Below, in pieces: positions 619-15,161 of a DNA stretch of 38,960 nucleotides (its first letter is position 1; each line of letters opens with the position of its first letter). Under the pieces are notes generated by a model. It had not been told where the DNA came from, did no database searches, and worked only from the letters and a program-made list of their open reading frames with translations. Source of the DNA: an uncultured Roseburia sp. (GTDB lineage: Bacteria; Bacillota; Clostridia; Lachnospirales; Lachnospiraceae); assembly GCA_947567625.1 (NCBI GenBank), contig CANONN010000032.1, positions 1-38,960 on the forward strand, read 5' to 3'. The translations under genes and the position numbers were made by a program.

Positions 619-1344
619 CTATGCCTTTACAATAATAGCATCAAATCCCCCCGCTTGCAACCTTTTCTGCATAGCGGCAGCGTTGCTTCTGACAGAGTAA
701 GCCCCTACCTGCACACGATAAATTTCTTTTTTATCGCCTGTCGCCGTCTCTGCGCCGGAAGTCGCCGCCTCCTTGTCCTGCGTCTCTTCTGCCGGCCAAC
801 TGACTTTCATTCCCGTGATACCGTAGACAATCGCCTCCGCCATCTTCTGTGCATCGTAAAGCTGCACGTCGTCCTTATCGTCCACAAAGCAGCACTCGAT
901 CAGCATGGCCGGAGCTTTCGTCCTGCGCAGGAAGTAAAGGCTCGTATTCGCCTTAATTCCGCGGTTTTTAAAGCCGAGTGAGGAAATGCTTGCACACACC
1001 CTTTCTGCGGCCGGCTTGGCCGCTCCTGCGGTGTTATAGACTAATACCTCTGTCCCGGTTGTTCTGCCATTTCCCGCCAAATCCCCGGCTCCGGCGTTAA
1101 AGTGGATGGATACGTCCAGGTCTACCGTATGTGCATTGCAGGCGGCCACGATCTTAGACAACACGTCCGCCTGGCTGCTGCCGTTCTCACAGGTACAGTC
1201 ATAGACAGTATGTCCCATCTGCCGAAGTTCCCTGATAACCTCATCTTTTACTTTTCTTGCTTCCGTGGATTCCTGAATGAATCCGATTGCCCCGCAGGCT
1301 GGCTTTCCGTCCGGGTTATGCCCGGCATGTACGTTGATTCTCAT
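619..1344 (-). CDS. N-acetylmuramoyl-L-alanine amidase with SPOR domain (tailocin endolysin)
   Basis: A 241-residue Amidase_3 enzyme that cuts the amide bond between MurNAc and the stem peptide; here probably the endolysin that frees tail particles from the producer. The zinc-site motifs are visible: H9 in VHAGHN, E25 or E28, H81 in SIHFNA, and the catalytic E150 in MLIECCFVDD. A linker rich in Ala, Thr and Glu (about 180-204) leads to a C-terminal SPOR peptidoglycan-binding domain (about 205-241, YRVQVGAYSVRSNA). There is no signal peptide, so export must rely on the holin encoded just upstream, whose stop overlaps this start by 4 bases (ATGA). It is the last gene of the operon. Host amidases also have this fold; the position in the operon decides the role. 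Confidence 0.9.
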   Translation of the reverse strand: MRINVHAGHNPDGKPACGAIGFIQESTEARKVKDEVIRELRQMGHTVYDCTCENGSSQADVLSKIVAACNAHTVDLDVSIHFNAGAGDLAGNGRTTGTEVLVYNTAGAAKPAAERVCASISSLGFKNRGIKANTSLYFLRRTKAPAMLIECCFVDDKDDVQLYDAQKMAEAIVYGITGMKVSWPAEETQDKEAATSGAETATGDKKEIYRVQVGAYSVRSNAAAMQKRLQAGGFDAIIVKA

Positions 1345-1820
1345 ATTAAATTATCCTCTGTTTCTTTATCCTCTTCCAACATCTCTGTCATCTCGTCTAC
1401 CTGTGTCCTGATATGCTTTACCAGCGGCAAAAGAAACGCCGGGATGTTTACGCCAATATCAATCATGTTCTCAAGGATACTAATCAGCTCATTGCAGATA
1501 ATCCAAACTGCCACGATACAAGCGATCAGGAATGTAAAAGGCAGCGCAATCCCAAATGTCGCAGACGCATATTTTAAAAGCTGGTCCATAATCGCTCCCA
1601 CGACTACCAAAAGCCACATGGTGACCTTCTTGCAGATTCCACGCATACTTTTATACGAATTTATCGCGCCCTTGCGGTTTGGCGCCGCCATAAGTCCGGT
1701 TATGTAATCAATGATATTGCAAATTACCATCAGCAGCACCGGAACGTACAAAATGCCTAGTACCGACGACAGGAAGCCCGTAATTCCTGTGATGATTGCC
1801 TGAATAGATTTATTGTTCAT
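1341..1820 (-). CDS. phage holin (TcdE/Cph1-type family)
   Basis: A 159-residue membrane protein with the usual form of the Gram-positive toxin-secretion/phage-lysis holins. It has an N-terminal hydrophobic segment (about 8-40) ending in the family-typical DYITGLMAA, a basic loop (NRKGAINSYKSMRGICKK), two or more further membrane segments (about 67-85 and 93-115), and an acidic cytoplasmic tail (EMLEEDKETED). Holins of this family open the membrane so that the amidase reaches the wall. A GAGG ribosome site lies 9 bases before the ATG. It follows the fibre gene after a 36-base gap and is translationally coupled to the amidase. Confidence 0.85.
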   Translation of the reverse strand: MNNKSIQAIITGITGFLSSVLGILYVPVLLMVICNIIDYITGLMAAPNRKGAINSYKSMRGICKKVTMWLLVVVGAIMDQLLKYASATFGIALPFTFLIACIVAVWIICNELISILENMIDIGVNIPAFLLPLVKHIRTQVDEMTEMLEEDKETEDNLI

Positions 1821-1856
1821 CTGTTTGGCCTCACTTTCTCATATTCAATGTATCTG

Positions 1857-3971
1857 TTATTTCATATAGATTCTAATATGGCTTTCATCCAACCGCTCCA
1901 TAACGTAGAATCCATCATCCGCCGCCGTAGCAATGCCGCCGTCTGTCGGCACACAAAACCCGTCTGGCTGGCAGGTGCCGTCATCACGGACGACAAGCTT
2001 ACCATGCGTGCCTACTGCGTCCCATTCCGGTCGGTCTGCACGTTTGATATACTGTTTCGTCTCGTCATAGACTGGATTTAATATCCGATCCTTTACGACG
2101 GTTCCATCTTCCTGCTCTACGTCTTCCCATATATCGCGTCCATAAATATCTTTTTGGTATTTATGCAGCCACTCTTTCTGGTCGCTGTCCCCGACTATAG
2201 ACGGTGTGGCCGATACAACACCTACTTTCACAAGGTTATCTCCCTTTTTAGCGATTCTAATATTTTTGCCGACGAATGTGACAAAACAACCTACTCTGTC
2301 TTCTTCGTCTGAATTACCGTCTGCCCATTCCCAATATTCGGCGTAGTCACCTCCAAGAGAAGCAAAATTGCCCGCTTGAACTTCACTTTCCATGATACGC
2401 ACCATACCTCTTTTTACTTTGTCCCAATAAGAGTAAAATTCATGCGAACATGAACCGCCATTCGTCACATATAACATCAGACCCTCATCAATCTGGCTTG
2501 CTGTTATAATCCCATCACGCACTTTTAGTGGATTAACGAACGTACCTTCTGGTTTTAATTCGTCCTCTCTTGCACTCCCACTACAATCAAACGATACGCC
2601 AGAAGCTGCTTCAAATATTATGTTCTTTTCTGCTGTAGTAACATCAGCAAATAAAGCCCCCCCTAATATAACAATATCTCCTTCCAATATTCCGCCATTT
2701 TTAGGAAAATATGTATCTGCAATCACCTTACCATTTCCGTCTTTCACCGCCGAATTAACATTAAAGTTCCCTGGGCTCCACACATAGTTATCTGTTCCTG
2801 TACCTGTATTACTTCCCCAAACATAAAGAGGCTGTCCCGCCTGCCCGCTGTAATGGAATGTCATAGGATGCTTATTATCTCCCCCGCATCCTATACTCGT
2901 TGCGCAACCGTCCAGTCTTGCCCGGATTGGTGACGTAGACACCAGTTCTCCATTTTCGCAATACAATCTTGCGTCAAAATCTGCCTGCGACCCTGCATCA
3001 TGGAAATCTATGTACTTACCAATCTCCATCAGTCCACCGCCGTCTGTAGCCGACTGGATTACCGGTATCCCAGGGCCTCCGAGATAATTGCTTAAATCCG
3101 TCTGGGCAAGCAACCGATTCCACTCAGACCACACGTCATTGATGTAATTCCTTACATAAGTATCAACAGCTACGCCGTTTCCACGGTGGCTTACTGCGAT
3201 CTGGACTGTATTGGTACCCCCTACATTTAATACCAACAAATTAAAGTAAAAATGATATGGTTTCGTCCCGCTCGCGGTCGGAGCTATCCAGTAAAAACCA
3301 TTTTGGCATCCGCTCGTTAATGTATCAATATCGCCCTGAAAAGTCCCCCTTGATTGGCCGTACTGATCCAGAAAATTGGTAAGCCATCCTTCGTAACCCT
3401 GCGATTTTAGATAAACATTTCCGTCTGTCGCAAACACTCCGCCGCCGGAACCGTTTAGATTCCCGGTAATAGTATCTCCGTTTTTTGAAACCGTTTCCTG
3501 TCGCAGCGTCTCTATTTGTTCTTCATACTCGTCATAAGCAACATATAAAATATTTGGTGATGACACCGTAATATTCGACACATCCGATATGAGCAATGAA
3601 AGCCTTATTCTTTTATGCGTGCGCTCGAGCCCAGTGCTGCCCACCATATACTGCGCATCATCCCCGCAATTATCGTAGACATACAATACATCCCCCTCAA
3701 CAGTGGACACAATCACCCCTATCTCCCTGAAATAATAATCATAATCCACCTTGGGAAAATCCGCCGTTATCACACATTCTCCGTCCGTGATATCAATCTT
3801 TAAATCCGTAAGCTCATACAACTGGTGCACCAAGCCCTTTACGGTGCCAAAATTCGTTGGGGCATGACCGTCCCCAACTACTACAGACTTAATATTCATT
3901 TGATTGGACAACTGCGCCTGATTCAGCGCATCCCGCCCGGAAACTGTTAATGTCAGTCCTGCCCATGCCAT
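1857..3971 (-). CDS. tail fibre with C-terminal Peptidase_G2 self-cleaving chaperone domain
   Basis: A 704-residue fibre, the likely receptor-binding protein of the tailocin. Residues 1-155 are a phage tail-collar/gpH-type N-terminus (MAWAGLTLTVSGRDALNQAQ, YYFREIGVIV) that docks on the baseplate. The middle (about 160-500) is glycine- and asparagine-rich beta sequence with no family I recognise, as expected for the variable tip. Residues from about 510 to 704 match Peptidase_G2 (GGDYAEYWEWADGN, EDRVG, GVVSATPSIVGDS), a domain that helps the trimer fold and then cuts itself off, so the mature fibre should end near residue 500-520. A strong GGAGGGGG ribosome site precedes the ATG. The central part looks more AT-rich than the baseplate genes, which suggests exchange by transfer. 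No separate fibre chaperone gene follows. Confidence 0.85.
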   Translation of the reverse strand: MAWAGLTLTVSGRDALNQAQLSNQMNIKSVVVGDGHAPTNFGTVKGLVHQLYELTDLKIDITDGECVITADFPKVDYDYYFREIGVIVSTVEGDVLYVYDNCGDDAQYMVGSTGLERTHKRIRLSLLISDVSNITVSSPNILYVAYDEYEEQIETLRQETVSKNGDTITGNLNGSGGGVFATDGNVYLKSQGYEGWLTNFLDQYGQSRGTFQGDIDTLTSGCQNGFYWIAPTASGTKPYHFYFNLLVLNVGGTNTVQIAVSHRGNGVAVDTYVRNYINDVWSEWNRLLAQTDLSNYLGGPGIPVIQSATDGGGLMEIGKYIDFHDAGSQADFDARLYCENGELVSTSPIRARLDGCATSIGCGGDNKHPMTFHYSGQAGQPLYVWGSNTGTGTDNYVWSPGNFNVNSAVKDGNGKVIADTYFPKNGGILEGDIVILGGALFADVTTAEKNIIFEAASGVSFDCSGSAREDELKPEGTFVNPLKVRDGIITASQIDEGLMLYVTNGGSCSHEFYSYWDKVKRGMVRIMESEVQAGNFASLGGDYAEYWEWADGNSDEEDRVGCFVTFVGKNIRIAKKGDNLVKVGVVSATPSIVGDSDQKEWLHKYQKDIYGRDIWEDVEQEDGTVVKDRILNPVYDETKQYIKRADRPEWDAVGTHGKLVVRDDGTCQPDGFCVPTDGGIATAADDGFYVMERLDESHIRIYMK

Positions 3972-3975
3972 ACTT

Positions 3976-4518
3976 CTACCCCCTCCTTTGTTTTAATTCA
4001 ATAATATCCGCTTCACTAAAAAACGCGCCACAATAGATTTTCCCCGCATGCGTACCCTCATAAACGATATGTGTCGCAATATTCACCGGGACCATGACAG
4101 ACAAAAGATATTCTAATTCCTCAGTCTGGCTGTCATCCATAGAATATACCGTTAGTACCAGATCATAGCTGTCTGGTCTGAGCCAAACAAAAAAATGATG
4201 CCCGCCTCCAAACAATTCCGAAAGTTTCCTTTCTAACGCACGCATAGTATATGGGAGCCTGTCTTTCCACCTATTTTGCACCCTCGCACGCCTCGATTCG
4301 AGGGAGGCGTCCTCTGATGGGTATATGCCCAGTAATTTTTCACGCCTCGCTATGCCGTATTCATCCGCGGTGGATATAAAATGGTTGTGCAAAACTTCGT
4401 CCACCGCCTCCCACGCTTTGCTAAATTCCGGGTCCTCCGCCCGAAGCGCTGCAACCGGTTCTTTATATTCCTTTATAAACGGCGGCAAATAGGAAACCAG
4501 GTCAACCTCTCTTTTCAT
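3976..4518 (-). CDS. xkdU: XkdU-like baseplate protein (DUF2313)
   Basis: A 180-residue DUF2313/YmfQ-family protein. The N-terminus (VDLVSYLPPFIKEYKE) and the central block ESRRARVQNRWKDRLPYT followed by LERKLSELFG are typical. In PBSX and Mu-like phages this protein lies between baseplate J and the fibre and is thought to link the baseplate to fibres, as T4 gp48/Mu gp48-type proteins do. Its ATG overlaps the baseplate J stop (ATGA), and it is followed 4 bases later by the fibre gene. Confidence 0.85.
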   Translation of the reverse strand: MKREVDLVSYLPPFIKEYKEPVAALRAEDPEFSKAWEAVDEVLHNHFISTADEYGIARREKLLGIYPSEDASLESRRARVQNRWKDRLPYTMRALERKLSELFGGGHHFFVWLRPDSYDLVLTVYSMDDSQTEELEYLLSVMVPVNIATHIVYEGTHAGKIYCGAFFSEADIIELKQRRG

Positions 4519-5717
4519 GCAGACACACCTCCCAGCACCGGGATTTCATATGGTCCCAAAATCAGGTTCGCGGCGTTTTCATTCAAACGGGTATCTGCAA
4601 TATCCGCTACGCCTTTTACCGACAATATCCGGGTTTCCATCTGACTTAGCCGGACCACTATAGAAGCGCTCTGTGCCCATCCTTTTCTAAGCTCCAACAA
4701 ATACGCGCTTACGGCCTCCTGAATGGGCGCCCTTAGATTGCCCCAGCTATACCCCTCATCAAATGTCAGGGTGGTCCTGATATTTATTTCACGCGGAACC
4801 GCACTTTTCACATTGACAACATGCCCGATCGGGGCAAGCCCATACCCTTCGCCGGCATGTTCCCCCGGGTCTATGGCAGATTGCACCTTATCCAGCAATG
4901 CATTGCCTGCTTCCCCAAAATCTAACGAATTTACGATTGTCACCATGACAGTACCGCCTACCGTCAATTTCTTTTCCCGCGCGGCCGTATAGACAGCGGA
5001 AAGCCACGACGCAGCCTCTGCATCCAGCCCAGCAATAATAGAATCATACCATTCCGTAACTTTCGCGCCAGGCATTAATTGGGCGGGGCTGATATCCCCA
5101 TTCCACACCCTTGTAACTTTACAATCGCCAACGCCGTCCATCTTTCTGATTTTGGACAAATAATCCGCCCGGTTCCCGCCGAAAGACTGCTCTTTAAAAC
5201 TGTCAAGATAGCGCTGCCGGAATACTTCGGTATCTTCCTCGTCCTCCCCCGGTATCAATACTTCCGTAAGCTGCGCTGACTGCAGACCGCTGATGTAATC
5301 CATCGGTATCATATCCCCAAGATACTGGTTGCCGACGGCCCCGGCTGTTTCACTCTGCACCTGGTACTGCCCGGGACTAATCTGCTCCAGCACCACATAA
5401 TTCCTATCGCCGATATTGAAACGTTTTCCAGCGACATCAATGTCTGCCGGGACAAACTCACCTTTTAAAATGGCCTTTGTCGCGGGTTCCGGGGACAATC
5501 CCCTGTCTTTTGCAATCAACACCAGAAATTCCCTTGCGGCGGTGTCACCGTATGAATTTTTTATCAGGTATTCCAGCTCGATATATAGAATTTGAAACTC
5601 AATTGCGGTGGGTGAATGGGTGTCCCACAGAACCGAACCCTCCCGTTTGTCGAATTTGTCAGGCACACGGGCAAGCATCCTGTCACGGATTGCTTCGTAT
5701 GTATTCTGTTCATACAT
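4515..5717 (-). CDS. xkdT: baseplate J/gp47-family wedge protein
   Basis: A 400-residue baseplate J-like protein, the wedge subunit that triggers sheath contraction. Family hallmarks are the N-terminal block (REGSVLWDTHSPTAIEFQI), the central ETAGAVGNQYLGDM segment, and EVFRQRYLDSFKEQSFGGNRADY before a C-terminal half with repeated beta units. The start is taken as ATG at 5715-5717, with an AGAGGTGA ribosome site; an in-frame TTG one codon earlier is less likely. Its start overlaps the end of xkdS and its end overlaps xkdU by 4 bases, so translation is coupled through the baseplate block. Confidence 0.9.
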   Translation of the reverse strand: MYEQNTYEAIRDRMLARVPDKFDKREGSVLWDTHSPTAIEFQILYIELEYLIKNSYGDTAAREFLVLIAKDRGLSPEPATKAILKGEFVPADIDVAGKRFNIGDRNYVVLEQISPGQYQVQSETAGAVGNQYLGDMIPMDYISGLQSAQLTEVLIPGEDEEDTEVFRQRYLDSFKEQSFGGNRADYLSKIRKMDGVGDCKVTRVWNGDISPAQLMPGAKVTEWYDSIIAGLDAEAASWLSAVYTAAREKKLTVGGTVMVTIVNSLDFGEAGNALLDKVQSAIDPGEHAGEGYGLAPIGHVVNVKSAVPREINIRTTLTFDEGYSWGNLRAPIQEAVSAYLLELRKGWAQSASIVVRLSQMETRILSVKGVADIADTRLNENAANLILGPYEIPVLGGVSA

Positions 5718-6121
5718 CAAAAATTCACCTCTCTTTCTGCCCGCACATCCCCAAAAATGGTATGCGCGGTAAATGACGCGCGGACAATGCCCTTTTGCGG
5801 GAATGTAAACTCGAACCCGTCAACGGCCTTTATCCTTTGATCCCAAAGCAGCGCTTCCGAAATCCTCCGTTCCAGCTCCGGCTGAACATAACTAACCGGC
5901 TCGCCGAAAAGGTCCAGAAGCTCAATCCCGTAATTCCAACTGTACATGGCATACTGATACCGCTCTGTCATAAGGATTTTATAGACCGCCTGCTTTACCG
6001 CCTCCAGTCCGTCCGCATAGCCGCGGACCGCATTGTCCTCCATCTGCATCTTATATGTTAGGCTTGGCTGTTCCTTTATTTCAAAATCCTGGGTTAAAAA
6101 CCCGGCTGTCGACGGAATCAT
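5717..6121 (-). CDS. xkdS: XkdS-like baseplate protein (DUF2634)
   Basis: A 134-residue DUF2634 protein, equivalent to T4 gp25, which initiates the sheath at the baseplate. The middle block (VKQAVYKILMTERYQYAMYS, then a WNYGIELLDLFGEP stretch) is the conserved gp25-like core holding the YPMY/YS-type signature region. Its start overlaps the xkdR stop (ATGA). Together with baseplate J downstream it forms the conserved sheath-contraction pair of all contractile injection systems. Confidence 0.85.
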   Translation of the reverse strand: MIPSTAGFLTQDFEIKEQPSLTYKMQMEDNAVRGYADGLEAVKQAVYKILMTERYQYAMYSWNYGIELLDLFGEPVSYVQPELERRISEALLWDQRIKAVDGFEFTFPQKGIVRASFTAHTIFGDVRAEREVNF

Positions 6122-6555
6122 GTGCCAATCCGATCCAGCACAACAAACTTTTGGCCCCCCTGCTGCCTGATCAGGAGAACCGCGTCACCGGCAGCCAAGC
6201 CATTGTGTACGGTGATTTGCTTTTCCCCCGTTATGTTGTGCGTATGCGCAAGATTTTTTTCGCCTGTAACCAAATCCAGGCTATCCCCGGCATGGTCGTT
6301 TCCTTTTACGGTATGGCTGTGGGCGCCGAGTTCTTTTTCGGTCTGCCAGCCGACCGTGACCGTGGTCTGAAAATCTGTCACATTTCTCGATAAGATCAGC
6401 TGCATCTCGCCGAGTATCATCTTTTGTTCCACATTGATTTTTAAGGGCGCCGCGCTCACCACTTCCCCAAAATAGACATGGACGGGCTTTGCCGCCTCTA
6501 CCGCTTCCAGCGAAGATTTTTTCAATGTTTCAACCAGTCCGTTTGCATCAGGCAA
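6118..6555 (-). CDS. xkdR: XkdR-like protein (DUF2577), probable spike/hub OB-fold component
   Basis: A small DUF2577 protein of about 145 residues. The most plausible start is the TTG at 6553-6555, which has GAGGGGG eight bases upstream. A GTG at 6564 overlaps that ribosome site and would add three residues. Both starts lie inside the end of xkdQ, so the genes overlap. The beta-rich core (VHVYFGEVVSAAPLKINVEQ) fits the OB-fold region of spike proteins. Two histidine pairs (AHSHTV and LAHTHNI) with a nearby DHAGD could bind a metal ion, as spike tips do; that point is inference. The C-terminus (LAAGDAVLLIRQQGGQKFVV) is the usual family end. Confidence 0.8.
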   Translation of the reverse strand: MPDANGLVETLKKSSLEAVEAAKPVHVYFGEVVSAAPLKINVEQKMILGEMQLILSRNVTDFQTTVTVGWQTEKELGAHSHTVKGNDHAGDSLDLVTGEKNLAHTHNITGEKQITVHNGLAAGDAVLLIRQQGGQKFVVLDRIGT

Positions 6556-7528
6556 TAAATTCACCCCCTCGTAATGTTAAATCCATCCAATGTTCATTTT
6601 CTTTGTAGGTATGCTTGCATGTTTCCACAAGCATCCAGTTTTTCACTTTTACGTCCCCAAGGTCCAGGCAGACCACAATCATAGAGCCTGCCCTGACACG
6701 GTTGTCCCCAAAAGCGTTTGTTATTCTCAGATTTCTGGTTTTTTTGTTATAGAGCTCCAGCAGCGCATTTACCTTGGCAGACCCGTTTTCCCCCTTCTGC
6801 AGCGTATCAAAATACTGCAGGATACCCCATTGATTGATATGGGAGGAATCCTGCGCAATATAAACTTCCCTGCGTCCCGTCTCCTCGTTGTCATAGGTCA
6901 GCTTTATTTTGTTGTATGTGTTGTCATCAATGGATGAGGTATAGTCAAAGTTTTCGCCCGTCTCCTCATCCACCATCAGGTAAGCCCCCGGCACGCCGAC
7001 ATACATGGAGGACAGGTTCTTTAACGTCAGTCTGCCAAAATCATCATACAGAACATACATTTCGCCCCTGTTTGTCAGTGTCAGGTCCAGGGCATTTGCA
7101 ATCATGTCAAAAAGAGACGTGTTTTCCTCAACCCTGGACCCGATCACATACCCCGTATCTTCCAGCTCGCCGACATTCAGCGCATAATCGTCCGCTATCA
7201 TTCTTATAAACTGCGCCGCGGTCTTCCCCTCATACACCTTGGTATCCTTATTTTTCAAATACCGCAGCTGGTCATAGGCGGTGACTGTGATGATCTGGTC
7301 TTTGGAACGCTGCTGCTTAAAGACAAACCCGAAAAAAATATTTTCACCGTCGACCCGCATCCTCACCGGACTGCCCTCTGAAAAATCAAGGATATCGTCC
7401 CGCAGGACTTTAAAAACCAGCTTTCCGGGCGTATTCTTACGCTCGGTGGACCACTCAATCCCCTCCTGGACAACCGGCTGAAACACTTTTGTGCCCAGCT
7501 CGTTTCCAACCAATAATTCTACATTCAT
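6548..7528 (-). CDS. xkdQ: XkdQ/YqbQ-like tail hub protein
   Basis: A 326-residue XkdQ/YqbQ protein, the central hub under the tube (T4 gp27/Mu gp44 fold class). It starts with the typical VELLVGNELGTKVFQPVVQE and carries a conserved middle (KTAAQFIRMIADDYALNVGE) and the end block (GDVKVKNWMLVETCKHTYKE, then HWMDLTLRGGEFI). Some members are annotated as hydrolases, but I see no catalytic motif here and read it as structural. A GGAAGGTGA ribosome site precedes the ATG. It lies directly after the LysM hub protein. Confidence 0.85.
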   Translation of the reverse strand: MNVELLVGNELGTKVFQPVVQEGIEWSTERKNTPGKLVFKVLRDDILDFSEGSPVRMRVDGENIFFGFVFKQQRSKDQIITVTAYDQLRYLKNKDTKVYEGKTAAQFIRMIADDYALNVGELEDTGYVIGSRVEENTSLFDMIANALDLTLTNRGEMYVLYDDFGRLTLKNLSSMYVGVPGAYLMVDEETGENFDYTSSIDDNTYNKIKLTYDNEETGRREVYIAQDSSHINQWGILQYFDTLQKGENGSAKVNALLELYNKKTRNLRITNAFGDNRVRAGSMIVVCLDLGDVKVKNWMLVETCKHTYKENEHWMDLTLRGGEFIA

Positions 7529-7539: not shown

Positions 7540-8229
7540 CTATACCGCCGGAATCGTCAATACCTGTCCCGGATAAATCAAGTTGGGATTGCCGCCGATC
7601 ACGCCGGCGTTTGCTTGATAGATCACCATGTACTTGGAACCGTCCCCATAAAAACGCTTTGCAATCCCCCAAAGGCTGTCCCCGCTTACCACCGTATAGC
7701 TTTGCGCCGACGCGGGAGCCGGCGCATTGCCGGTCTCGCGCGTCGATTCCACACTCGCCTGGGGCTTCCCGGCCACGATTTGTACATCTGCCGTTTTGGT
7801 CCCATAATCACGCCATTCTTTTAAGCTGATTTTGACCTGAAAATCCAGCCCTTCCTTGGCGTCTTCCGTAATCCTGTAGTCTTCTAACGTCACTGTCATA
7901 TGTGTGTCCACCGGTTTTTTTACCCCAGGACAATCCCTGTAAATAGCAAATTGGAACGGCTTTCGACTGTCTTTGAGTTCCTCAAATACCTTCTTATAGT
8001 AACCGGCGTCTTTAAATTTAGGCTCATAAGTAGCGTATGGGTACTTGATCTGCGGTATTTCGCACTCAAATTCGATCTCTGTCAGCCCCTTGTTTTTGAG
8101 GATATTGACCTCACCGTCATTGATCAGGTTTACTGTTTTGTTGTTACCGTTTATTTTGGCCTGTATTTTCCCTGGAGGGACAGGCAATAAGCACTTTCCC
8201 AGATACACACGGTATCCATTCTCTGACAT
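7540..8229 (-). CDS. xkdP: XkdP-like LysM baseplate protein
   Basis: A 229-residue protein with an N-terminal structural part (about 1-150) and a C-terminal LysM domain (about 176-229: [34 protein letters not shown]) joined by an Ala/Pro/Thr linker. It is the XkdP/T4 gp53-like protein that helps hold the hub to the first sheath disc; the LysM probably recognises glycan or assists assembly. The ATG follows the tape-measure TAA directly, and a GGAAGGGGTG ribosome site lies inside the end of the tape measure gene. Confidence 0.9.
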
Positions 8230-10881
8230 TTATGCATGCACCCCTTCCGTCATACTGTCAACCGCTTCATTTACCGAATCAGTCAGTTTTATTAGAAACC
8301 TATCGATATCATCGCCGTTGTTAATATTGTTCTGCATACCGGACATATCTACCTTGATTTCAGCAGTCGTATATCGGTTGATAACTTCCTGCTCCGCTAT
8401 GTCGCGAAGGTATTTCAATTCCTCCCCGGTAATATCCATCGAATCTTTAATGGCACTGGTATTGTCTGCGATATTGCCAATATTCTCGCCAAGGCCGGAA
8501 TCATCCAGGGCGCCGTTCAAACCTTCCAGATAATCATCCTGGTTTGACTGATCATCGTCTGACTGATCATCCGTTTTGAACAAATCGGACAGGCTGAAAT
8601 TACTGGCTGCATCTTCTATCCCCTCTCCAAAAGAATAGCCCGCATCCCAAGCCTTGTCGTAATCAATGAACTCCTTTTGTTTCATATATTCAATCCATTC
8701 GGATTCATCTTTCACGTCCTGCCTTGCCTTCTCCAACATCGCATAAAAATTATCCAGACTCCCTGTAATATCAACGCTTACGCCTGGAATTTTATTCAAT
8801 AGCGTTTCGATGCCGCTTGCCAGGTTCCGAATATATCCGGCCACAATGATACACATATCCAAAAATGCAATTTTGATTGCGGCAATTGGATCATTGAACG
8901 CGTTACCAAAAAAATTCACAAATGTCGCGATCAAATTCCATACCGGGATGATAACTTTATTGGAAATATACGCTCCCAATAATGCAAAATATCCCATGAT
9001 AATTCCGGTCGCAGATACGGAAGTTCCAGCTATTTTATTCAATGCCGCTACTGCCACATAAAACAGGGCAATCAAGACGATAATAAGTAAAATAATCCAT
9101 GTAAGGGGGCAAGCCAACAAAGCGGCGTTTAGCCCACACTGCGCTGTCGTCTCTGCCACGGTGGCGTCAGTTGCCAACATTTGTGCAGCTGTTTTTACGG
9201 CCTCTGATATTGCTTGGATACCGTTAATCACCGCAACGATTCCCGCCACAACTAAATAAGCGCCTAAAGCCGCCACAATCCCATAAACAATAGGACTGAT
9301 AACCGACCAATTATCAGCGATAAAACCGCCGATCATCGCCGCCGCATCAAAAACATCCAACAGGATAGATGCGAGAATTGCTATCGCCATAATAACACCA
9401 TCCACCAAGGTCTGAAATTCTTCGCTATTGACGACTTCATTAATTTTTTGCAGAATAGGTTCAAATGCCTTCAGTGCAGTATTCTTGATTGACTGAACAG
9501 ACTGTCCGAAGGTCATCGGCATACTCTCGAATTTTGCATTCGTTTCATCGGCGGCATAGAACATTGAATTTTTGATTACCTCGGCAGTAATGACACCTTC
9601 CGAAGCAAGGTCTTTGATGTTACTTGCATCTATCCCCTGCACTTCCTGCAAATATCGTTGCATATCCTGAACAATCGCCGGTGTGTTCTCCATGATCACA
9701 CTCAGATCTTCCCCCTGCAGCCCGCCTGCCGCCATCGACTGCGTAATCTGCTGCATGACGGAATTCATACCCTGCTCAGAGGTTCCGGCATTTACAAACT
9801 GCTTATTTAAAAGTTCGGTAAAGCCTATCAATTCATCGTTGGAGCGAAACGCCTGCGGAGCCTGTATGCCCAAGGTGGAAACTGCGTCAATCGTCGCCGT
9901 ATACGATCCCCTTGCGGCCTGCGCAGAAGCAAATATCTTATCTTGCAGCTCCTCTACGCTTCCACCATCGTCGACAATTAAATCAAGCCGGGCCCTTGTC
10001 TGCACCATGCTATCTGATAATTCCAGAACTTTCGCCACTGATTCAGGCGTTATAAGGTCGGCGGCAAACTGCTTTATGGTCCCCAGCAGCGTACCGGCAT
10101 GTGAAACGCCCCCCTGAATATCCTGTTTGAATCTTCCCTGCTCGTCAACATTATCCCTAATGTAGCGTTCGGTTCCGCTGACCGTCTGTGATAATCTCAA
10201 ATAAGCCTCATTAGCAGCGGAAACATCCATATCCCTGACTGCCTGGTTCATCCTCTCCTGCTCCCGTACCGCCTGATTAAGCTGCGTCCGCAGCTGTTCT
10301 AATTCCATATTCGCCGTATCGGTCCCCATGTTCAGCGGATTGCTTTCTATTGCCAAAATCCGTTGCTGGATTCCCTGTAAGCGGTTCTGCATATTGCCCA
10401 TATCCACTAACATCTCCGGCGGAAATATATCCGTCTGGGACGCCCGGGCTGCTATCTGCGCCTGTGTGGCGCGCAGAGTATATAACATATTATTTGCGCT
10501 TTGAACTTCCTGTTCAAACCGGTTTATTCCCGATCCGGTAAACACTTCCAATCCATCCGTATGCCACTGGACCGGGACTTCGATTGGTCCGGGCGGTTCC
10601 ACCGGTACCGAAACCGGTTCCCCGCTTTCCCCCGCCACAGCGGGCGGCACAAGATCGGGCGCCGCCTGCTGATCTAAGGCTTCATTCATCGCATTGGCCG
10701 CAGCCGCTGTCTGGTTGATTTCCTCCCTGGCCGCTTCCATACTGCTGGTATCAATGCCCGCGTTCATGCTCTCCTGCATATCATACATGGCGGAAACCGC
10801 CAGGCCGACAGAGCAGATGATATTGTTGATTACCGCGCTGAATTGATCGTTTAGTTGGATTACCATCTGAATCGACGACAT
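8230..10881 (-). CDS. tail tape measure protein
   Basis: The longest tail gene sets tube length. The start is taken at the internal ATG at 10879-10881 (MSSIQMVIQLNDQ), preceded by AGGTGA with good spacing, giving 883 residues. An ATG 13 codons upstream lies inside the frameshifted chaperone extension and is unlikely. Residues about 130-230 are glutamine-rich coiled coil. Residues about 310-440 hold the tape-measure core (GFTELLNKQFVNAGTSEQGM, GLQGEDLSVIMENTPAIVQD), and hydrophobic segments (about 480-680) resemble membrane spans, as in other tape measures. By the usual rule of about 0.15 nm per residue the tail would be roughly 130 nm (inference). Confidence 0.92.
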   Translation of the reverse strand: MSSIQMVIQLNDQFSAVINNIICSVGLAVSAMYDMQESMNAGIDTSSMEAAREEINQTAAAANAMNEALDQQAAPDLVPPAVAGESGEPVSVPVEPPGPIEVPVQWHTDGLEVFTGSGINRFEQEVQSANNMLYTLRATQAQIAARASQTDIFPPEMLVDMGNMQNRLQGIQQRILAIESNPLNMGTDTANMELEQLRTQLNQAVREQERMNQAVRDMDVSAANEAYLRLSQTVSGTERYIRDNVDEQGRFKQDIQGGVSHAGTLLGTIKQFAADLITPESVAKVLELSDSMVQTRARLDLIVDDGGSVEELQDKIFASAQAARGSYTATIDAVSTLGIQAPQAFRSNDELIGFTELLNKQFVNAGTSEQGMNSVMQQITQSMAAGGLQGEDLSVIMENTPAIVQDMQRYLQEVQGIDASNIKDLASEGVITAEVIKNSMFYAADETNAKFESMPMTFGQSVQSIKNTALKAFEPILQKINEVVNSEEFQTLVDGVIMAIAILASILLDVFDAAAMIGGFIADNWSVISPIVYGIVAALGAYLVVAGIVAVINGIQAISEAVKTAAQMLATDATVAETTAQCGLNAALLACPLTWIILLIIVLIALFYVAVAALNKIAGTSVSATGIIMGYFALLGAYISNKVIIPVWNLIATFVNFFGNAFNDPIAAIKIAFLDMCIIVAGYIRNLASGIETLLNKIPGVSVDITGSLDNFYAMLEKARQDVKDESEWIEYMKQKEFIDYDKAWDAGYSFGEGIEDAASNFSLSDLFKTDDQSDDDQSNQDDYLEGLNGALDDSGLGENIGNIADNTSAIKDSMDITGEELKYLRDIAEQEVINRYTTAEIKVDMSGMQNNINNGDDIDRFLIKLTDSVNEAVDSMTEGVHA

Positions 10882-10897
10882 ACTATCACCTGCCTTC

Positions 10898-11517
10898 CTA
10901 TCGTTTCTTCCTGGCTCCATGTTTCATTTTTTCTTGGTTTTTCTTATCGTTTTCCGCCTTGATTTTGATTGCCGCGATGACAAACGCTTTTTCCTGTTCG
11001 TCCATTTTCAGGAAAACAGAAGGCAGAATATGTAGCTTGTGAAGGGCATAGTAGGCAAAATTTGCCTCGCCATCCCCCCCGTTAATTAGTTTTTTGCCGC
11101 TTCCACCTTATCGTCAAGGCTCTGGGTAAATCCCTGGTATTTTTGCATCCAAACTGTGAATTCCTGGTACTCGCCGGCATTATCCACCATGGCATACAAA
11201 AGGTCTTCCGGGGTTTTCACCCCGTAGGAATCCTGCAGTTTTGCATCATACAAATCCGGGTATACCGTCGACGCCACGATCATCTTTGCAACATAATCCG
11301 CGGCTTTCACTTTCGGCCGAAAGAGGTTGGGCTTTCCCTTGACCTGTACCTCGATGGTGCAGGAATCCCGCAGCTCTTCATTTTCTTTCGAGGTAATCGG
11401 CCGAAATTCCCATTCCAGTGGTTTCCCATTCTCATCCTGCAAGGTAACCGTCGGCGCATACTTCCCGTTCGGTTTCTTCACTTTGTTTGCTTTCATAAAT
11501 CTGCTGAATTCTGACAT
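10898..11517 (-). CDS. tape-measure chaperone, -1 frameshift product (XkdN plus extension)
   Basis: The long form of the tape-measure chaperone, like lambda gpGT. XkdN ends GCA AAA AAC TAA, and AAAAAAC at 11095-11089 is a classic -1 slippery heptamer directly before the stop. A slip gives CTA ATT AAC GGG and an open frame of 63 more codons to the TAG at 10898-10900, for a product of 206 residues. The extension is clearly protein-like (FAYYALHKLHILPSVFLKMD, EQEKAFVIAAIKIKAENDKK) and ends strongly basic. It has no start codon of its own near its beginning, so gene callers miss it. Its 3' end stops 16 bases before the preferred tape-measure start. The rate of slipping cannot be read from sequence. 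Confidence 0.82.
11086..11517 (-). CDS. xkdN: XkdN-like tape-measure chaperone (short form)
   Basis: A 143-residue phage_TAC_3/XkdN-family protein, the short form of the chaperone that keeps the tape measure soluble while the tube polymerises on it. The core (WEFRPITSKENEELRDSCTI, KVKAADYVAKMIVASTVYP, YGVKTPEDLLYAMVDNAGEY) is characteristic. AGGAGA lies upstream of the ATG, 20 bases after the tube gene. It ends AAKN with the slippery site over the last two codons. Confidence 0.88.
   Translation of the reverse strand: MSEFSRFMKANKVKKPNGKYAPTVTLQDENGKPLEWEFRPITSKENEELRDSCTIEVQVKGKPNLFRPKVKAADYVAKMIVASTVYPDLYDAKLQDSYGVKTPEDLLYAMVDNAGEYQEFTVWMQKYQGFTQSLDDKVEAAKN
11089..11095 (-). promoter_or_regulatory. 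-1 frameshift slippery site
   Basis: A-AAA-AAC in the xkdN frame, with TAA as the next codon. A run of seven G (11074-11080) lies just downstream in the transcript and may take part in a stimulating structure. Confidence 0.8.
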
Positions 11518-12037: not shown

Positions 12038-13345
12038 CTATGATACTGTGACTGTCATGTACAATTTGCCCATTGCGTTTACTACCGTTACAACGTCCCG
12101 GACAACCACCGCCTTCTTGGTGTTTCCCGGTTCCACCGTCACTTCACTGTCGGAAAAATCTTCAATTGCCCGGATTCTTTCCAACTCCCTGTGATGCGCT
12201 ACAATGTCCGACCAGAGAGAAATTCTCCCGGCTGCGTCATTGGGGACAGCGCCCATGTACTTTGTGCAGAACAGCACCGCGATATCATTGCCGATCTGGT
12301 CAATCACACGGACCGTCTGGTTATCCTTAAAAATATCGCCCTGGGTATCGCTCACCGTCACCATGGTATTGATATCTTCGAGCACCCTGATATCCGCATT
12401 GACGCGGTGCAATACAAACTCGCCGCTCTTTACAGACTGTTCCAGCTCGCTCTGCTTATAATTCGCCTCGACCGCAAAGGAACCGTCATACAATTTATTC
12501 TGGCAGGATTTATTGACCTCGCATCCCGCCTGCGCGCCGGTCACCCAATAGACAAGGCTCGCTTCGCTGGCCCCCTCGTCCAGCGTTTTATTTTTGACGC
12601 TGATAACGCCCATAGAGTCAACCGCCGCCCGGTACAGCACCACCTGGAACTTGATGCCCATTTCATCCCGCATCCGCTTATTGAAAGCGGCATACAGCTT
12701 CTTGGTCGTATCATCCGTCACAACGGCTCCCATGGCGTTATAGGTATACGGTTCTATCTTGTCCAAATAAGCCTGATGCGCATTTCCGTCAACCGTCCCG
12801 TTTGTACCGCCCGTCAGAGGGGATGCCGCCATAACCGTAAGCTCGGTATCCGCCTTAAAAGTCACATAGTCATTTGCCACCAGCTCCGCCGCGCCCGCAA
12901 CCGTCTGTAAATCCACCCTGGCTGTCCCAAGGTAAGTCGATACGTCAAACCGTGTCGCGTCATCTGCGTTCGCCCCAACGGCAACTTTCAGGTCATTCCC
13001 GCGGATACCGCTATAGAGGGCCGTTGCCAGCTCATTTGCCGCCTGCTTGCCGCCTCCGTTCAAACGGTAGGCGTAGAGTGTTCTCGCCCCCATAAATAAA
13101 TCCCTGAGCCCTTTGAGTTTGGGGCTGTCAAACGCATAGCCAAAAAGCTTCAGACTGTTCTTTTGGAAGTCCTCGCTCGACACTTCAAAGACTTCCTCCT
13201 CCCTGCCCCAGTCCAGTTCCAATGGCATCGTCGCAATCCCCCTGTCAGACAAGGATGCAGAAGCGGATGCCGCCGATACAAAATTGATATACGCGCCCGG
13301 AAGCGCCTTATTTTCCGCAGTAAAACTGCCGCCGCCTAAAGACAT
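12038..13345 (-). CDS. xkdK: contractile tail sheath protein (XkdK-like)
   Basis: A 435-residue XkdK-family sheath. The N-terminal handshake arm (GGGSFTAENKALPGAYINFV, RGIATMPLELDWG), the inserted outer domain (about 90-190) and the conserved C-terminal part (VLEDINTMVT, DIFKDNQTVRVIDQIGNDIA, LWSDIVAHHRELE) are all present. The gene looks intact, so a contractile tail is expected. This is what separates the island from F-type tailocins, which have no sheath. GGAAGGTGA precedes the ATG, and the gap to the upstream YqzN/YkzM-type gene is one base. Confidence 0.95.
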   Translation of the reverse strand: MSLGGGSFTAENKALPGAYINFVSAASASASLSDRGIATMPLELDWGREEEVFEVSSEDFQKNSLKLFGYAFDSPKLKGLRDLFMGARTLYAYRLNGGGKQAANELATALYSGIRGNDLKVAVGANADDATRFDVSTYLGTARVDLQTVAGAAELVANDYVTFKADTELTVMAASPLTGGTNGTVDGNAHQAYLDKIEPYTYNAMGAVVTDDTTKKLYAAFNKRMRDEMGIKFQVVLYRAAVDSMGVISVKNKTLDEGASEASLVYWVTGAQAGCEVNKSCQNKLYDGSFAVEANYKQSELEQSVKSGEFVLHRVNADIRVLEDINTMVTVSDTQGDIFKDNQTVRVIDQIGNDIAVLFCTKYMGAVPNDAAGRISLWSDIVAHHRELERIRAIEDFSDSEVTVEPGNTKKAVVVRDVVTVVNAMGKLYMTVTVS

Positions 13346-13346
13346 A

Positions 13347-13562
13347 TTATTTCACCTTCCCTTTCTTATATTTTTCAATCATGCTGTCAACTGTTTCAAA
13401 GGTATAGCTTGTCCCCTCCTCCAGAAGGGCGCTTACCAGATCTCTTTCCTTACGGTACTTTTCAGAAGCCGTGATCTGCTCTTTGCTAAAAAGCCTCTTT
13501 TTCGTTTTACCGTCTGCATCTGTGTGGTTTTCCTGCTTTCTTTCTGCCGCCACCTCATTCAC
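13347..13562 (-). CDS. YqzN/YkzM-domain small protein upstream of sheath
   Basis: A 71-residue charged protein: a disordered N-terminus (about 1-22) and a helical unit (KEQITASEKYRKERDLVSAL, TFETVDSMIEKYKKGKVK). The unit matches the YqzN/YkzM domain found just before the sheath gene in PBSX and skin-element phages. Role unknown; position suggests a helper of sheath or tail-end assembly. It overlaps the end of the tail terminator gene by 8 bases and precedes the sheath by one base. Confidence 0.7.
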   Translation of the reverse strand: MNEVAAERKQENHTDADGKTKKRLFSKEQITASEKYRKERDLVSALLEEGTSYTFETVDSMIEKYKKGKVK

Positions 13563-13989
13563 CTTCTTTCATTTTAATACTTGATTCCATCTCATCCATG
13601 GGCGTCTGATCTTTTGGCCTATAAACAAAACCGTCATAGTTCACAAAGAAATCCAAAACACCCTCTTTCTTTTCATACCTCATCTTTGTCCCCCGAATTG
13701 GCCTATCTTCACCGTCTGTTCTGACATATTCCAGGCTCCGCCACATCCGTTCCGCCACACTGTTACATTCCCGTTGCATTTCCTCTGTTTTGGGAAAATA
13801 CCGGATGCGAAACTGTGACTTTCGGGCATAGCGATTTCCAAGAAACCGTTCGCAGGATGAATTTTGGCAAGAGATCAAAAAACAAGGTTTTTGCAAATCC
13901 TGCCCCCCGTCTTCCATATAGATGTTACAGATATTGCCAAATTCATCATTCAGAGCAGCACTGATTGCCTCGATTATGGAATTTATCAT
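13555..13989 (-). CDS. phage tail terminator-like protein (DUF6838 type)
   Basis: About 144 residues, starting MINSIIEAISAALNDEFG. The start chosen is the ATG at 13987-13989: it has GGAGGG nine bases upstream and overlaps the stop of the preceding tiny ORF (ATGA). An in-frame ATG at 13998 sits directly against GGAGGG and is too close. The body (CFLISCQNSSCERFLGNRYA, QFRIRYFPKTEEMQRECN, MRYEKKEGVLDFFVNYD) fits the small tail terminator/completion proteins that cap the tube and sheath at the head-proximal end. In a headless particle this is where the tail is closed off. It is the first full-size gene of the operon. Confidence 0.75.
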   Translation of the reverse strand: MINSIIEAISAALNDEFGNICNIYMEDGGQDLQKPCFLISCQNSSCERFLGNRYARKSQFRIRYFPKTEEMQRECNSVAERMWRSLEYVRTDGEDRPIRGTKMRYEKKEGVLDFFVNYDGFVYRPKDQTPMDEMESSIKMKEGE

Positions 13990-14072
13990 TTCAGGCATCC
14001 CTCCAAATTCGTTTTAATCTTGTTTTCCGCTATATAGACTTTAAATCTTTTCTCTGTTTTCCTGCATCTCAT
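13986..14072 (-). CDS. 28-residue leader ORF, translationally coupled to tail terminator
   Basis: ATG at 14070-14072 and TGA at 13986-13988 give a 28-residue basic peptide (MRCRKTEKRFKVYIAENK, ending LEGCLK). Its TGA overlaps the ATG of the tail terminator as ATGA, the same coupling seen at four other junctions of this operon, and a GGATGG motif lies upstream. It is too short to assign. It may be a real tail-associated peptide or a leader that sets translation of the operon. Confidence 0.45.
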   Translation of the reverse strand: MRCRKTEKRFKVYIAENKIKTNLEGCLK

Positions 14073-14160
14073 TACCATCCTTTCCTCATTATTAAGCTCT
14101 TTTATTATCTGGAAATGAATAGAGCTTTTTTAAGTTACTTGGTAAAATTCCGTCTCGTTT

Positions 14161-14176
14161 TTACGAGCACTCGTAA
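14161..14176. promoter_or_regulatory. operator O1 (perfect palindrome)
   Basis: TTACGAGCACTCGTAA: perfect 7-base arms around CA. It lies just after the tail promoter -10 box, over the expected first transcribed bases (about +5 to +20), where a bound repressor would block transcription. Confidence 0.8.
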
Positions 14177-14187
14177 CTTATGTTTGC

Positions 14188-14216
14188 ATTATATACGAGC
14201 AATCGTGCGATGTCAA
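14188..14216 (-). promoter_or_regulatory. tailocin operon promoter (full sigma-A consensus)
   Basis: On the minus strand TTGACA (14216-14211), 17 bases, TATAAT (14193-14188): both boxes and the spacing are at consensus. Transcription should start near 14181, leaving a leader of about 110 bases before the 28-residue ORF. Such a strong promoter needs tight repression, which the O1 and O2 positions can give. Confidence 0.9.
14193..14208. promoter_or_regulatory. operator O2 (degenerate, inside tail promoter spacer)
   Basis: ATACGAGCAATCGTGC matches 12 of 16 positions of O1 and starts exactly 32 bp from it. It fills the spacer between the -35 and -10 boxes of the tail promoter. Confidence 0.7.
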
Positions 14217-14224
14217 CTCTTTTT

Positions 14225-14240
14225 TTACGAGTTCTTGTAA
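14225..14240. promoter_or_regulatory. operator O3 (near-perfect palindrome)
   Basis: TTACGAGTTCTTGTAA: arms as in O1 with one change, starting exactly 32 bp from O2. It lies 8 bp behind the tail -35 box and 7 bp behind the repressor -35 box, so it may tune both promoters. Confidence 0.75.
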
Positions 14241-14247
14241 TTTTTTA

Positions 14248-14276
14248 TTGATTTGCCCGCAGTTCCATGGTAAAAT
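14248..14276 (+). promoter_or_regulatory. repressor promoter
   Basis: TTGATT (14248-14253), 17 bases, TAAAAT (14271-14276). The repressor start codon is 22 bases further on, after AGGAGG (14287-14292). Confidence 0.75.
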
Positions 14277-14298
14277 TAGTGCAACGAGGAGGTGGATT

Positions 14299-15063
14299 AT
14301 GGATTTTTTAGAAAAATTGGATTTTCTCATGGATAAGTTCGGTCTTACCAAAACATCCTTATCGAAAAAAAGCGACATACCCTATACCACGATTGACGCA
14401 TGGTATAAAAAGGGATATGAAGGATTAAAACTCACTACCTTAAGAAAACTGGCGCAATATTTCAATACAACCTTAGATTACTGGTTTTTAGATGAAGTGA
14501 CCGACCCCAATTATGGAAAGACATCTGGTTTCAAAGTAGAATATAACGAAATGGAGCACATCAAAAAATACCGGTTTATCTCCTCTCATTCCCCGGACGC
14601 GGCAAGTGTAGTCGATCTGGTACTTAATCGGGAATATACTATCGTGCAGCAGATGCAGGGAAAAGAGAAACGAATCAAAGAGCTGGAAAAGGAACTGATT
14701 CCAAAACGCATACTTGCCTATTACGGCAAGATTGCCGCCGCCGGAACCAGTGTCGAATTTTCAGATATGATTGCAGGAACACAAGAATATCTTCTGACTT
14801 CTGAGAGCGAACGCGCTGATTATACGATAGGCGTTAATGGTGATTCCATGGAACCGACTTACAGCGACGGGGATATTGTATATGTAAAAAAAGAAACCCA
14901 TTTGACTACGGGTGATATTGGCATTTTTCAGAAACATAACGGGATTTATATAAAAGAAGTGGGAGAAAATGTTCTCTTATCTCATAATCCTAAATACAAG
15001 CCCATAAAAAATGACGGGGATATCATCTGCTTAGGAAAAGTATTAGGGAAAGTTGAGGAATGA
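14299..15063 (+). CDS. LexA/CI-like self-cleaving repressor (HTH + S24 peptidase)
   Basis: The start is ATG at 14299-14301, with AGGAGG six bases upstream; the longer frame from 14248 has no ribosome site. Of 254 residues, 1-65 are an HTH_XRE DNA-binding domain (GLTKTSLSKKSDIPYTTIDA, LRKLAQYFNTTLDYW). Residues about 75-140 are a linker with coiled coil, and residues 140-254 are an S24/LexA peptidase. Self-cleavage parts are all visible: an Ala-Gly bond in KIAAAGTS (A148-G149), nucleophile S183 in NGDSMEPTYSDGD, and general base K219 in GIYIKEV. It is divergent from the tail operon and very probably binds the three palindromes between them. DNA damage with active RecA should make it cut itself and release the operon (known for the family, inferred here). 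Confidence 0.92.
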   Translation: MDFLEKLDFLMDKFGLTKTSLSKKSDIPYTTIDAWYKKGYEGLKLTTLRKLAQYFNTTLDYWFLDEVTDPNYGKTSGFKVEYNEMEHIKKYRFISSHSPDAASVVDLVLNREYTIVQQMQGKEKRIKELEKELIPKRILAYYGKIAAAGTSVEFSDMIAGTQEYLLTSESERADYTIGVNGDSMEPTYSDGDIVYVKKETHLTTGDIGIFQKHNGIYIKEVGENVLLSHNPKYKPIKNDGDIICLGKVLGKVEE

Positions 15064-15120
15064 ACCGGGCGGATTTGGGACTTTAACTCATTAGAGACGT
15101 ACACCGCCAGGCGCACAAGG

Positions 15121-15161
15121 AAACCGCCCTGGTGTTGTCGGCACCGGAGCGGTTTATTTTT
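15121..15161 (+). terminator. terminator of the repressor gene
   Basis: AAACCGCCCTGGTG pairs with CACCGGAGCGGTTT around a loop near 15135-15141, followed by ATTTTTTA. The remaining 90 bases to the metF stop hold only a 16-bp inverted repeat (CGATATG-GA-CATATCG, 15165-15180) without a T run; no att site or integrase remnant is visible. Confidence 0.8.

What the first reader, a model, noticed from the sequence alone, without database searches (positions are those of the whole stretch)
619..15161. Complete headless contractile tail operon: an R-type tailocin in a Lachnospiraceae-like genome
Sheath, tube, tape measure, hub, baseplate, fibre, holin, amidase and a damage-type repressor are all intact, while every head, packaging, replication and integration gene is missing and housekeeping genes sit directly outside. 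This is the defining layout of diffocin-like bacteriocins. Gut Lachnospiraceae tailocins are poorly described, and this one could be a precise killing agent against related strains. That it kills is inference.
Basis: partly seen in the sequence, partly recalled or inferred. Interest (0 to 1): 0.88.

Follow-up and report, generated by a model that had tools for sequence, protein, structure and literature searches.

The report
Headless contractile phage-tail (tailocin) locus
A gut-type bacterium carries a complete, tightly regulated set of genes for a phage tail without a head, most likely a self-sacrificing protein weapon against related bacteria, and comparison suggests that such headless tails arose many times from the same kind of virus.

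Summary
Window 619-15161 holds 15 co-directed genes for a contractile tail plus holin and amidase, under a divergent S24 repressor, with no head gene in the window.

Best reading: an R-type tailocin, laid out like diffocin but not of its lineage: the sheath is 56% identical to phage phiC2's and the hub lacks diffocin's hydrolase.

Of 63 related loci, 42 have heads and 12 are headless. Headless loci are scattered on the tail tree (one clade rejected, p 2e-12) and sit beside different host genes; one probably orthologous pair is under purifying selection. Head loss looks recurrent in gut Clostridia. Killing is inferred. New member of a known kind.

The parts
619..1344 (-). N-acetylmuramoyl-L-alanine amidase (Amidase_3) with SPOR domain: lysis
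1341..1820 (-). Holin (Phage_holin_4_1): lysis
   Evidence: two hydrophobic segments
1857..3971 (-). Tail fibre / receptor-binding protein, 704 aa; residues 1 to about 165 shared with relatives, the rest nearly unique; C-terminal self-cleaving chaperone domain (Peptidase_G2, 519-692)
3976..4518 (-). Baseplate wedge protein, Mu Gp48-like (position of diffocin Tri1, CD1372)
4515..5720 (-). Baseplate J protein (position of diffocin Tri2, CD1371)
5717..6121 (-). Sheath initiator / baseplate wedge gp25-like (position of CD1370)
6118..6564 (-). DUF2577 protein, in the position of diffocin's spike CD1369; spike role inferred from position only
   Evidence: no PDB hit
6548..7528 (-). Hub, XkdQ-like (YQBQ domain), 326 aa, no hydrolase domain
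7540..8229 (-). LysM protein, tail tube initiator
8230..10920 (-). Tape measure protein, 896 aa (883 aa from the internal ATG at MSSIQM)
11086..11517 (-). XkdN-like tail assembly chaperone
10898..11095 (-). Slippery heptamer A AAA AAC (11089-11095) and -1 frame extension of the chaperone, 63 codons
11538..12020 (-). Tail tube (XkdM-like)
12038..13345 (-). Contractile tail sheath, four Pfam sheath domains
13347..13562 (-). Small protein phrog_966, function unknown
13555..13998 (-). Tail terminator
14188..14216 (-). Promoter TTGACA-17-TATAAT (12 of 12) toward the tail operon
14161..14240 (.). Three operator-like palindromes (TACGAnnnnTCGTA) starting at 14162, 14194 and 14226
14248..14276 (+). 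Promoter-like site TTGATT-17-TAAAAT before the repressor gene (9 of 12, about as frequent as chance)
14299..15063 (+). CI/LexA-type repressor, HTH plus S24 peptidase with Ser/Lys dyad and Ala-Gly site
15121..15155 (.). Hairpin between repressor and metF, possible terminator
   Evidence: inverted repeat I9

Best explanation
An R-type (contractile) tailocin locus, a headless derivative of a phiC2-like contractile phage tail of Clostridia. The CI/LexA-type repressor sits on three 32-bp-spaced operators and shuts a consensus sigma-A promoter. After DNA damage it cleaves itself, and about 13.4 kb of tail and lysis genes are transcribed. Sheath and tube assemble on the baseplate along the tape measure, helped by the chaperone and its -1 frameshifted form; the terminator caps the tail because there is no head. 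Holin and amidase lyse the producer. Released tails bind related bacteria by the fibre, contract, pierce and depolarise them. Shown here: gene content, promoter and operator-like sequence, frameshift signal, absence of head genes at the locus. Inferred from known R-type tailocins: induction, assembly, lysis, killing.
For: 15 tail and lysis genes intact and in one direction; no hit of nine head/connector profiles in the window; gene order equal to diffocin's from sheath to Tri1; consensus promoter with a palindrome in its spacer; S24 Ser/Lys and Ala-Gly site kept; frameshift heptamer in 60 of 61 relatives; same tail behind a full head module in 42 of 63 relatives and without it in 12; headless pair L050/L060 under purifying selection, dN/dS 0.06-0.23 over 11 genes.
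Against: A prophage on contig C21 holds terminase, portal and minor-head genes of the phage type that bears this tail family, so the genome is not free of head genes. No close relative of this very locus was found, so its own maintenance by selection is untested. Its tape measure (896 aa) is still phage-length. No induction, particle or killing data exist.
Confidence: 0.82

Rival explanations
1. Decaying prophage remnant: head and early genes were deleted recently and the tail genes have merely not decayed yet; no particle is selected for.
For: Window tape measure is still phage-length. The window's nearest relatives include headed loci L075 and L067. Remnant loci such as L027 and L017 show that half-lost heads occur. 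No close relative allows dN/dS for this locus.
Against: All 15 genes open, the frameshift signal intact, a consensus promoter and an operator array in place, lysis genes kept. End branch of 0.3 changes per site without a broken gene. A related headless pair is under purifying selection.
Confidence: 0.1
2. Split phage: the head module of the C21 prophage uses tails made from this locus, so the locus is the tail half of a working or satellite-like phage.
For: C21 head genes are of the type normally found upstream of this tail; no second sheath, Baseplate_J gene or tape measure of this kind, and no Sipho_tail family, in the assembly.
Against: The C21 prophage is cut at the contig end, and its capsid, scaffold and connector are not in the assembly either, so its tail is probably unassembled too. 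The two loci have different repressors. Genome G023 shows a headed and a headless locus side by side.
Confidence: 0.04
3. Extracellular contractile injection system that delivers a protein cargo rather than a simple membrane-piercing tailocin.
For: A headless contractile tail with a LysM tube initiator.
Against: No AAA+ ATPase and no cargo-like gene among the 20 proteins scanned with Pfam; sheath, tube, chaperone and hub are of the XkdK/M/N/Q phage-tail kind and a holin-amidase cassette is included.
Confidence: 0.03

Closest known systems
Diffocin (R-type tailocin of Clostridioides difficile, CD1362-CD1372)
   Same: Headless contractile tail; same order sheath, tube, tape measure, LysM/tube tail, hub, spike position, sheath initiator, Tri2, Tri1 (PMC10996793, passages). 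Sequence relation of sheath (E 3e-8), tube (8e-6) and J (2e-15).
   Different: Sheath 435 aa against 354 aa and only remotely similar; hub without the C-terminal hydrolase domains reported for CD1368; fibre unrelated by the searches made.
C. difficile contractile phages phiC2 and PhiCD508
   Same: phiC2 sheath 56% and hub 52% identical, the highest among full-length isolate-phage hits. A hub without enzymatic domains as in PhiCD508 (PMC13324602, passages).
   Different: Complete phages with heads; the phiC2 hub region is annotated as a putative hydrolase.
Headed prophages of Lachnospiraceae and other Clostridia (for example L075, L067, L031)
   Same: Same tail genes in the same order, up to 70% identity over eight concatenated tail proteins (L075), same frameshift site.
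   Different: They carry TerS, TerL, SPP1-type portal, Mu-F protein, scaffold, capsid and connectors upstream.
R-type tailocin prophages of solvent-producing Clostridium (clostocin type)
   Same: Clostridial contractile tails that a review treats as tailocins (PMC10538166, passages).
   Different: The review reports prophages of about 38-46 kb that keep the full structural set, capsid included. This locus is about 14.5 kb and lacks it.

Membership tests
R-type tailocin | Sheath, tube, tape measure, hub, baseplate and fibre genes, all open | tested here: met
R-type tailocin | No head, terminase or portal gene at the locus | tested here: met
R-type tailocin | No matching head module elsewhere in the genome | tested here: inconclusive
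   C21 prophage with TerS, TerL, portal and minor head protein, cut by the contig end
R-type tailocin | Lysis cassette for release | tested here: met
   holin and amidase
R-type tailocin | Control by a DNA-damage-type repressor | tested here: met
   by sequence only: S24 domain, Ser/Lys dyad, Ala-Gly site, operator-like array; induction not tested
R-type tailocin | Headless particles that kill related strains | not testable with these tools
   needs induction, electron microscopy and spot tests
Diffocin lineage | Same order of tail genes | tested here: met
   against CD numbers in PMC10996793
Diffocin lineage | Hub with C-terminal peptidoglycan hydrolase domains | tested here: not met
   hub 326 aa, YQBQ domain at 24-320 alone (diffocin described)
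Diffocin lineage | Closest relatives are diffocin proteins | tested here: not met
   phiC2 sheath 56%, hub 52%; diffocin sheath only E 3e-8 over 215 residues
eCIS (extracellular contractile injection system) | AAA+ ATPase (hallmark recalled) and cargo genes in the cluster | tested here: not met
   none among 20 proteins scanned with Pfam
Intact prophage | Head and packaging genes at the locus | tested here: not met
Intact prophage | Integrase and replication genes, attachment repeats | tested here: not met
   none among the ORFs of 619-15161 scanned; no exact repeat of 9 nt or more between 300-640 and 15031-15300

The most novel reading that the evidence does not exclude
Headless contractile tails in gut Clostridia are an evolutionary series rather than one inherited weapon: one family of SPP1-head, contractile-tail prophages has been decapitated some eight to ten times or more at different chromosomal sites, survivors are kept by selection, and head loss tends to be followed by a shorter tape measure (median 767 aa in 15 headless against 899 aa in 28 headed loci). 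The window would be an early stage that still has a phage-length tail. This runs against the published generalisation that tailocin prophages of Gram-positive bacteria keep their capsid genes (PMC10538166).
Probability: 0.45. Interest if true: 0.62.

Novelty: new member of a known kind. Interest (0 to 1): 0.42.

Why it matters
R-type tailocins are narrow-spectrum killers. A review names diffocin as the only widely recognised Gram-positive R-type tailocin (PMC10538166, passages), and my searches of the held library listed no paper on tailocins of Lachnospiraceae. A clean headless locus with readable control elements, together with headed and headless relatives, some in cultured organisms, makes it testable how a phage becomes a bacterial weapon: which genes go first, whether tails shorten afterwards, and how often it happened.

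Tried and rejected
Empty-site comparison: metF was searched in 63 genomes of the genus (55 with a match). 29 relatives' loci with flanks of up to 1.5 kb were examined and none showed pfkA, the UBA-like ORF or another window gene beside metF, so the insertion site could not be compared. Attachment repeat: no exact direct repeat of 9 nt or more between 300-640 and 15031-15300. LexA-type box GAAC-N4-6-GTTC: none in 13901-15300.

Idea, from the diffocin/phage review, that headless tails have more transmembrane helices in the tape measure: no difference (p 0.15, 0.70, 0.15 at three cut-offs). Tape-measure length: Mann-Whitney p 0.0006 (15 headless, 28 headed; p 0.004 with 12 strict headless), but tree-independent pairs are only consistent in direction (8 pairs, median p 0.125). 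It was noticed after the fact and the window does not follow it.

Clade of window, L016, L021 and L080 (all headless): neither supported nor rejected (p 0.16). DUF2577 protein as a spike through PDB: no hit. Repressor in PDB: no hit. Operator-like matches with up to two mismatches in the whole window equal chance (24 against 24.07); only the exact matches and their clustering count. Other dN/dS pairs: L020/L021 0 to 0.42 (five genes, few changes), L073/L074 mostly saturated, L086/L087 (headed against headless in one genome) 0.14 and 0.11 for two genes. No structure prediction was run.

Full report
OBSERVATION. The window is the whole of contig C32 (38,960 bases) of a 3.42-Mb, 110-contig genome, 93% complete. 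Between tRNA-Val (358-433) and metF (15251-16114) lie 15 minus-strand genes and one divergent plus-strand gene. Pfam and PHROGs assign, in order of transcription: tail terminator, a small phrog_966 protein, sheath, tube, XkdN-like chaperone, tape measure, LysM tube initiator, XkdQ-like hub, DUF2577 protein, sheath initiator, Baseplate J, Gp48-like wedge, fibre with a Peptidase_G2 domain, holin, and amidase with a SPOR domain. The divergent gene is an HTH plus S24-peptidase repressor. Nine head/connector profiles built from related phages have no hit at E 0.1 in six frames of the window; four tail profiles and a repressor profile hit.

The gap of about 300 bp between tail terminator and repressor holds a 12-of-12 sigma-A-type promoter on the minus strand, TTGACA-17-TATAAT (14216 to 14188), pointed at the tail operon. 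The next best match in the scanned 1-15400 scores 10 of 12. Three palindromes of the form TACGAnnnnTCGTA (0, 1 and 1 mismatches) start at 14162, 14194 and 14226, exactly 32 bp apart; the middle one lies in the spacer of that promoter. In 5,000 first-order resamples of the gap none had three such sites (up to 2 mismatches) within 80 bp; in 300 resamples of the whole window 3 had. The repressor keeps the S24 serine and lysine and the glycine of the Ala-Gly cleavage site (S184, K220, G150 in the numbering, one less from the ATG at 14299), invariant in the five repressors aligned, two of which are near copies. Self-cleavage after DNA damage is inferred from the known behaviour of CI/LexA proteins.

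The chaperone gene ends ...GCA AAA AAC TAA. The heptamer A AAA AAC (11089-11095) is a classic -1 slippery site, and the -1 frame runs on for 63 codons to a stop at 10898-10900. Of 63 named loci 61 could be examined; 60 have A AAA AAC, all in the same phase, and all 61 have a slippery-type site with a -1 extension of 57-72 aa. This is the tail-chaperone frameshift known from long-tailed phages (recalled), kept in this headless locus.

FIBRE AND HUB. Among the loci held (L001-L203), the N-terminal part of the fibre matches in 10 (two of them pieces of one contig), none beyond residue 177; one further contig (G061, held twice) matches residues 351-408. By the same search the hub matches in 95 loci and the sheath in 159. 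The C-terminal domain matches the chaperone domains of a phi29-type pre-neck appendage protein and of tailspike Dpo31 in the PDB. This is the pattern of a receptor-binding protein with a kept anchor and a variable tip. The hub is 326 aa and shows the YQBQ domain alone. Diffocin's hub has extra enzymatic domains, the C. difficile phage PhiCD508 has none (PMC13324602, passages). So this tail would pierce mechanically, like PhiCD508 (inference).

REST OF THE GENOME. One sheath, one Baseplate_J gene and one tape measure of this kind are in the assembly, all in the window. A terminase search found a prophage at the end of contig C21: a repressor, early genes, TerS, TerL, SPP1-type portal and a Mu-F-like minor head protein cut at the contig edge. 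Its TerL is 89-91% identical to those of six loci and 98% to a contig-cut copy (L031) that stand upstream of this tail family; its Mu-F-like protein is 83% identical to that of L075, the window tail's nearest relative. A capsid (one query protein), the HK97-gp10-like connector, the scaffold and the Sipho_tail families were not found in the assembly. The likeliest reading is that the rest of that prophage is unassembled.

RELATIVES. The sheath found 63 loci in named records, one genome per species, by title mostly Lachnospiraceae and other Clostridia. With head profiles, 42 of 63 have at least two head genes (in one, L038, they are fragmentary), 12 have none (11 of these have a repressor near the tail start), 6 were classed as remnants and 3 are undetermined at contig ends. 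Of the 6, L025 and L029 are contig-cut with part of a capsid gene; L017 (connectors, an integrase gene where the head genes would be), L027 (terminase fragments), L051 (a scaffold-like fragment) and L074 (one connector) look like steps of head loss. The profiles were made from these loci, so an unrelated head type would be missed; 20 selected flanking ORFs of twelve headless or remnant loci were scanned with Pfam, five had no family, and none was a head gene. Neighbours differ: riboflavin synthesis (L073), S-layer protein (L074), carbohydrate kinase (L076), topoisomerase (L051), ABC transporter (L016), M60 peptidase (L054), GH88 hydrolase (L087). In IMG/VR, of the 80 best sheath loci kept of 100, 39 are headed, 13 have one head gene, 5 have at least 2.5 kb upstream with a repressor and no head gene, 3 have connectors only, and 20 are too short to tell. 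In the window's genus 9 of 63 genomes have a sheath match, 5 at 50% identity or more: G000, G061 and G021 headless, G004 cut just upstream of the sheath, G023 with one headed and one headless locus at contig ends. In the family sample 18 of 150 match, 7 at 50% or more, the window's genome included.

TREE. Eight tail proteins were concatenated for 52 rows; 15 rows with under half of the window's columns were dropped and three duplicates were left out beforehand. The headless label (15 rows) needs 10 changes, at least 9 forced by well-supported branches; with strict labels (12 headless of 40 rows) it needs 8. That is fewer than for shuffled labels (mean 13.4; 10 of 500 shuffles as low), so some headless loci do share a head loss. 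Holding all 15 as one clade is rejected, p-AU 2e-12. Head loss is thus recurrent unless heads were regained by recombination; the remnants favour loss. The window lies near headed L075 and L067 and headless L016, L021 and L080; whether it shares a head loss with those three is open (p 0.16). Module exchange between phages could distort a concatenated tree.

SELECTION. L050 and L060 are headless loci of two species with the same neighbours (lipoprotein, IrrE-like peptidase, repressor, small gene), so head loss probably predates their split. Over 11 tail genes dN/dS is 0.06-0.23 at dS 0.29-0.85. L082/L084 give 0.01-0.20 over nine genes, but L084 is cut upstream. Other pairs were uninformative (Tried and rejected). 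So headless tails of this family can be kept by selection; for the window no close relative exists to test it. A post-hoc lead: headless loci have shorter tape measures (median 767 against 899 aa, 15 and 28 loci, p 0.0006), consistent in direction but not significant in tree-independent pairs; the window (896 aa) is an exception.

COMPARISON WITH THE KNOWN. Gene order equals diffocin's from sheath to Tri1 (PMC10996793, passages), but sheath and hub are nearest to phages such as phiC2 (56% and 52%), while diffocin's sheath is remote. A review of solvent-producing clostridia says that R-type tailocin prophages of Gram-positive species have kept the full set of structural genes, capsid included (PMC10538166, passages); diffocin and the headless loci here are counterexamples. 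In the held library, 'tailocin' with 'Lachnospiraceae' gave 3 papers, none on tailocins of that family by title or abstract start (listing); 'contractile injection system', 'Lachnospiraceae' and 'phage tail' together gave none; 'tailocin', 'gut' and 'Clostridia' gave 14, of which I read passages of one. Subscription papers are not covered.

VERDICT. A complete and by sequence functional R-type tailocin locus of a lineage separate from diffocin: a new member of a known kind. The wider pattern, repeated decapitation of one phage family in gut Clostridia, is the more interesting result.

Noticed in passing
G000 contig C21:32000-53679 (L078, L079): A second, separate prophage in the same genome with repressor, TerS, TerL, SPP1-type portal and Mu-F-like protein, cut by the contig end.
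   Followed up: partly
L021:1-9400 (Lachnospiraceae bacterium COE1): Directly upstream of the headless contractile operon lies the end of a second, siphophage-type tail operon (Sipho_tail, Prophage_tail, GH25 lysozyme, holin): possibly an F-type and an R-type tail side by side, as in Pseudomonas pyocins (recalled).
   Followed up: no
L085, L086, L087 (genome G023): One genome holds a headed and a headless locus whose sheath starts are 97% identical over 124 residues; both break off inside the sheath gene, as if a shared tail part was collapsed in assembly.
   Followed up: partly
L050:804-1910 and L060:475-1713: A surface lipoprotein gene (Lipoprotein_Ltp in L050) beside the repressor of two headless loci; such lipoproteins are known from phage exclusion (recalled) and could give self-immunity.
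   Followed up: no
L017:3364-4686: A phage integrase gene stands between repressor and connector genes, where other loci carry the head module.
   Followed up: no
L031:3013-5655: The Mu-F-like head protein of a headed relative carries an ADP-ribosyltransferase exoenzyme domain at its C-terminus.
   Followed up: no
L026 and L028 (CAMRSM010000009.1): Two headed loci with the same gene string on one contig, about 38 kb apart: tandem prophages or an assembly duplication.
   Followed up: no
window 31453-38958: A very large ORF (over 2,360 aa) with a low-complexity N-terminal repeat runs off the contig end; it reads like a surface-exposed esterase-type protein (recalled, not searched).
   Followed up: no
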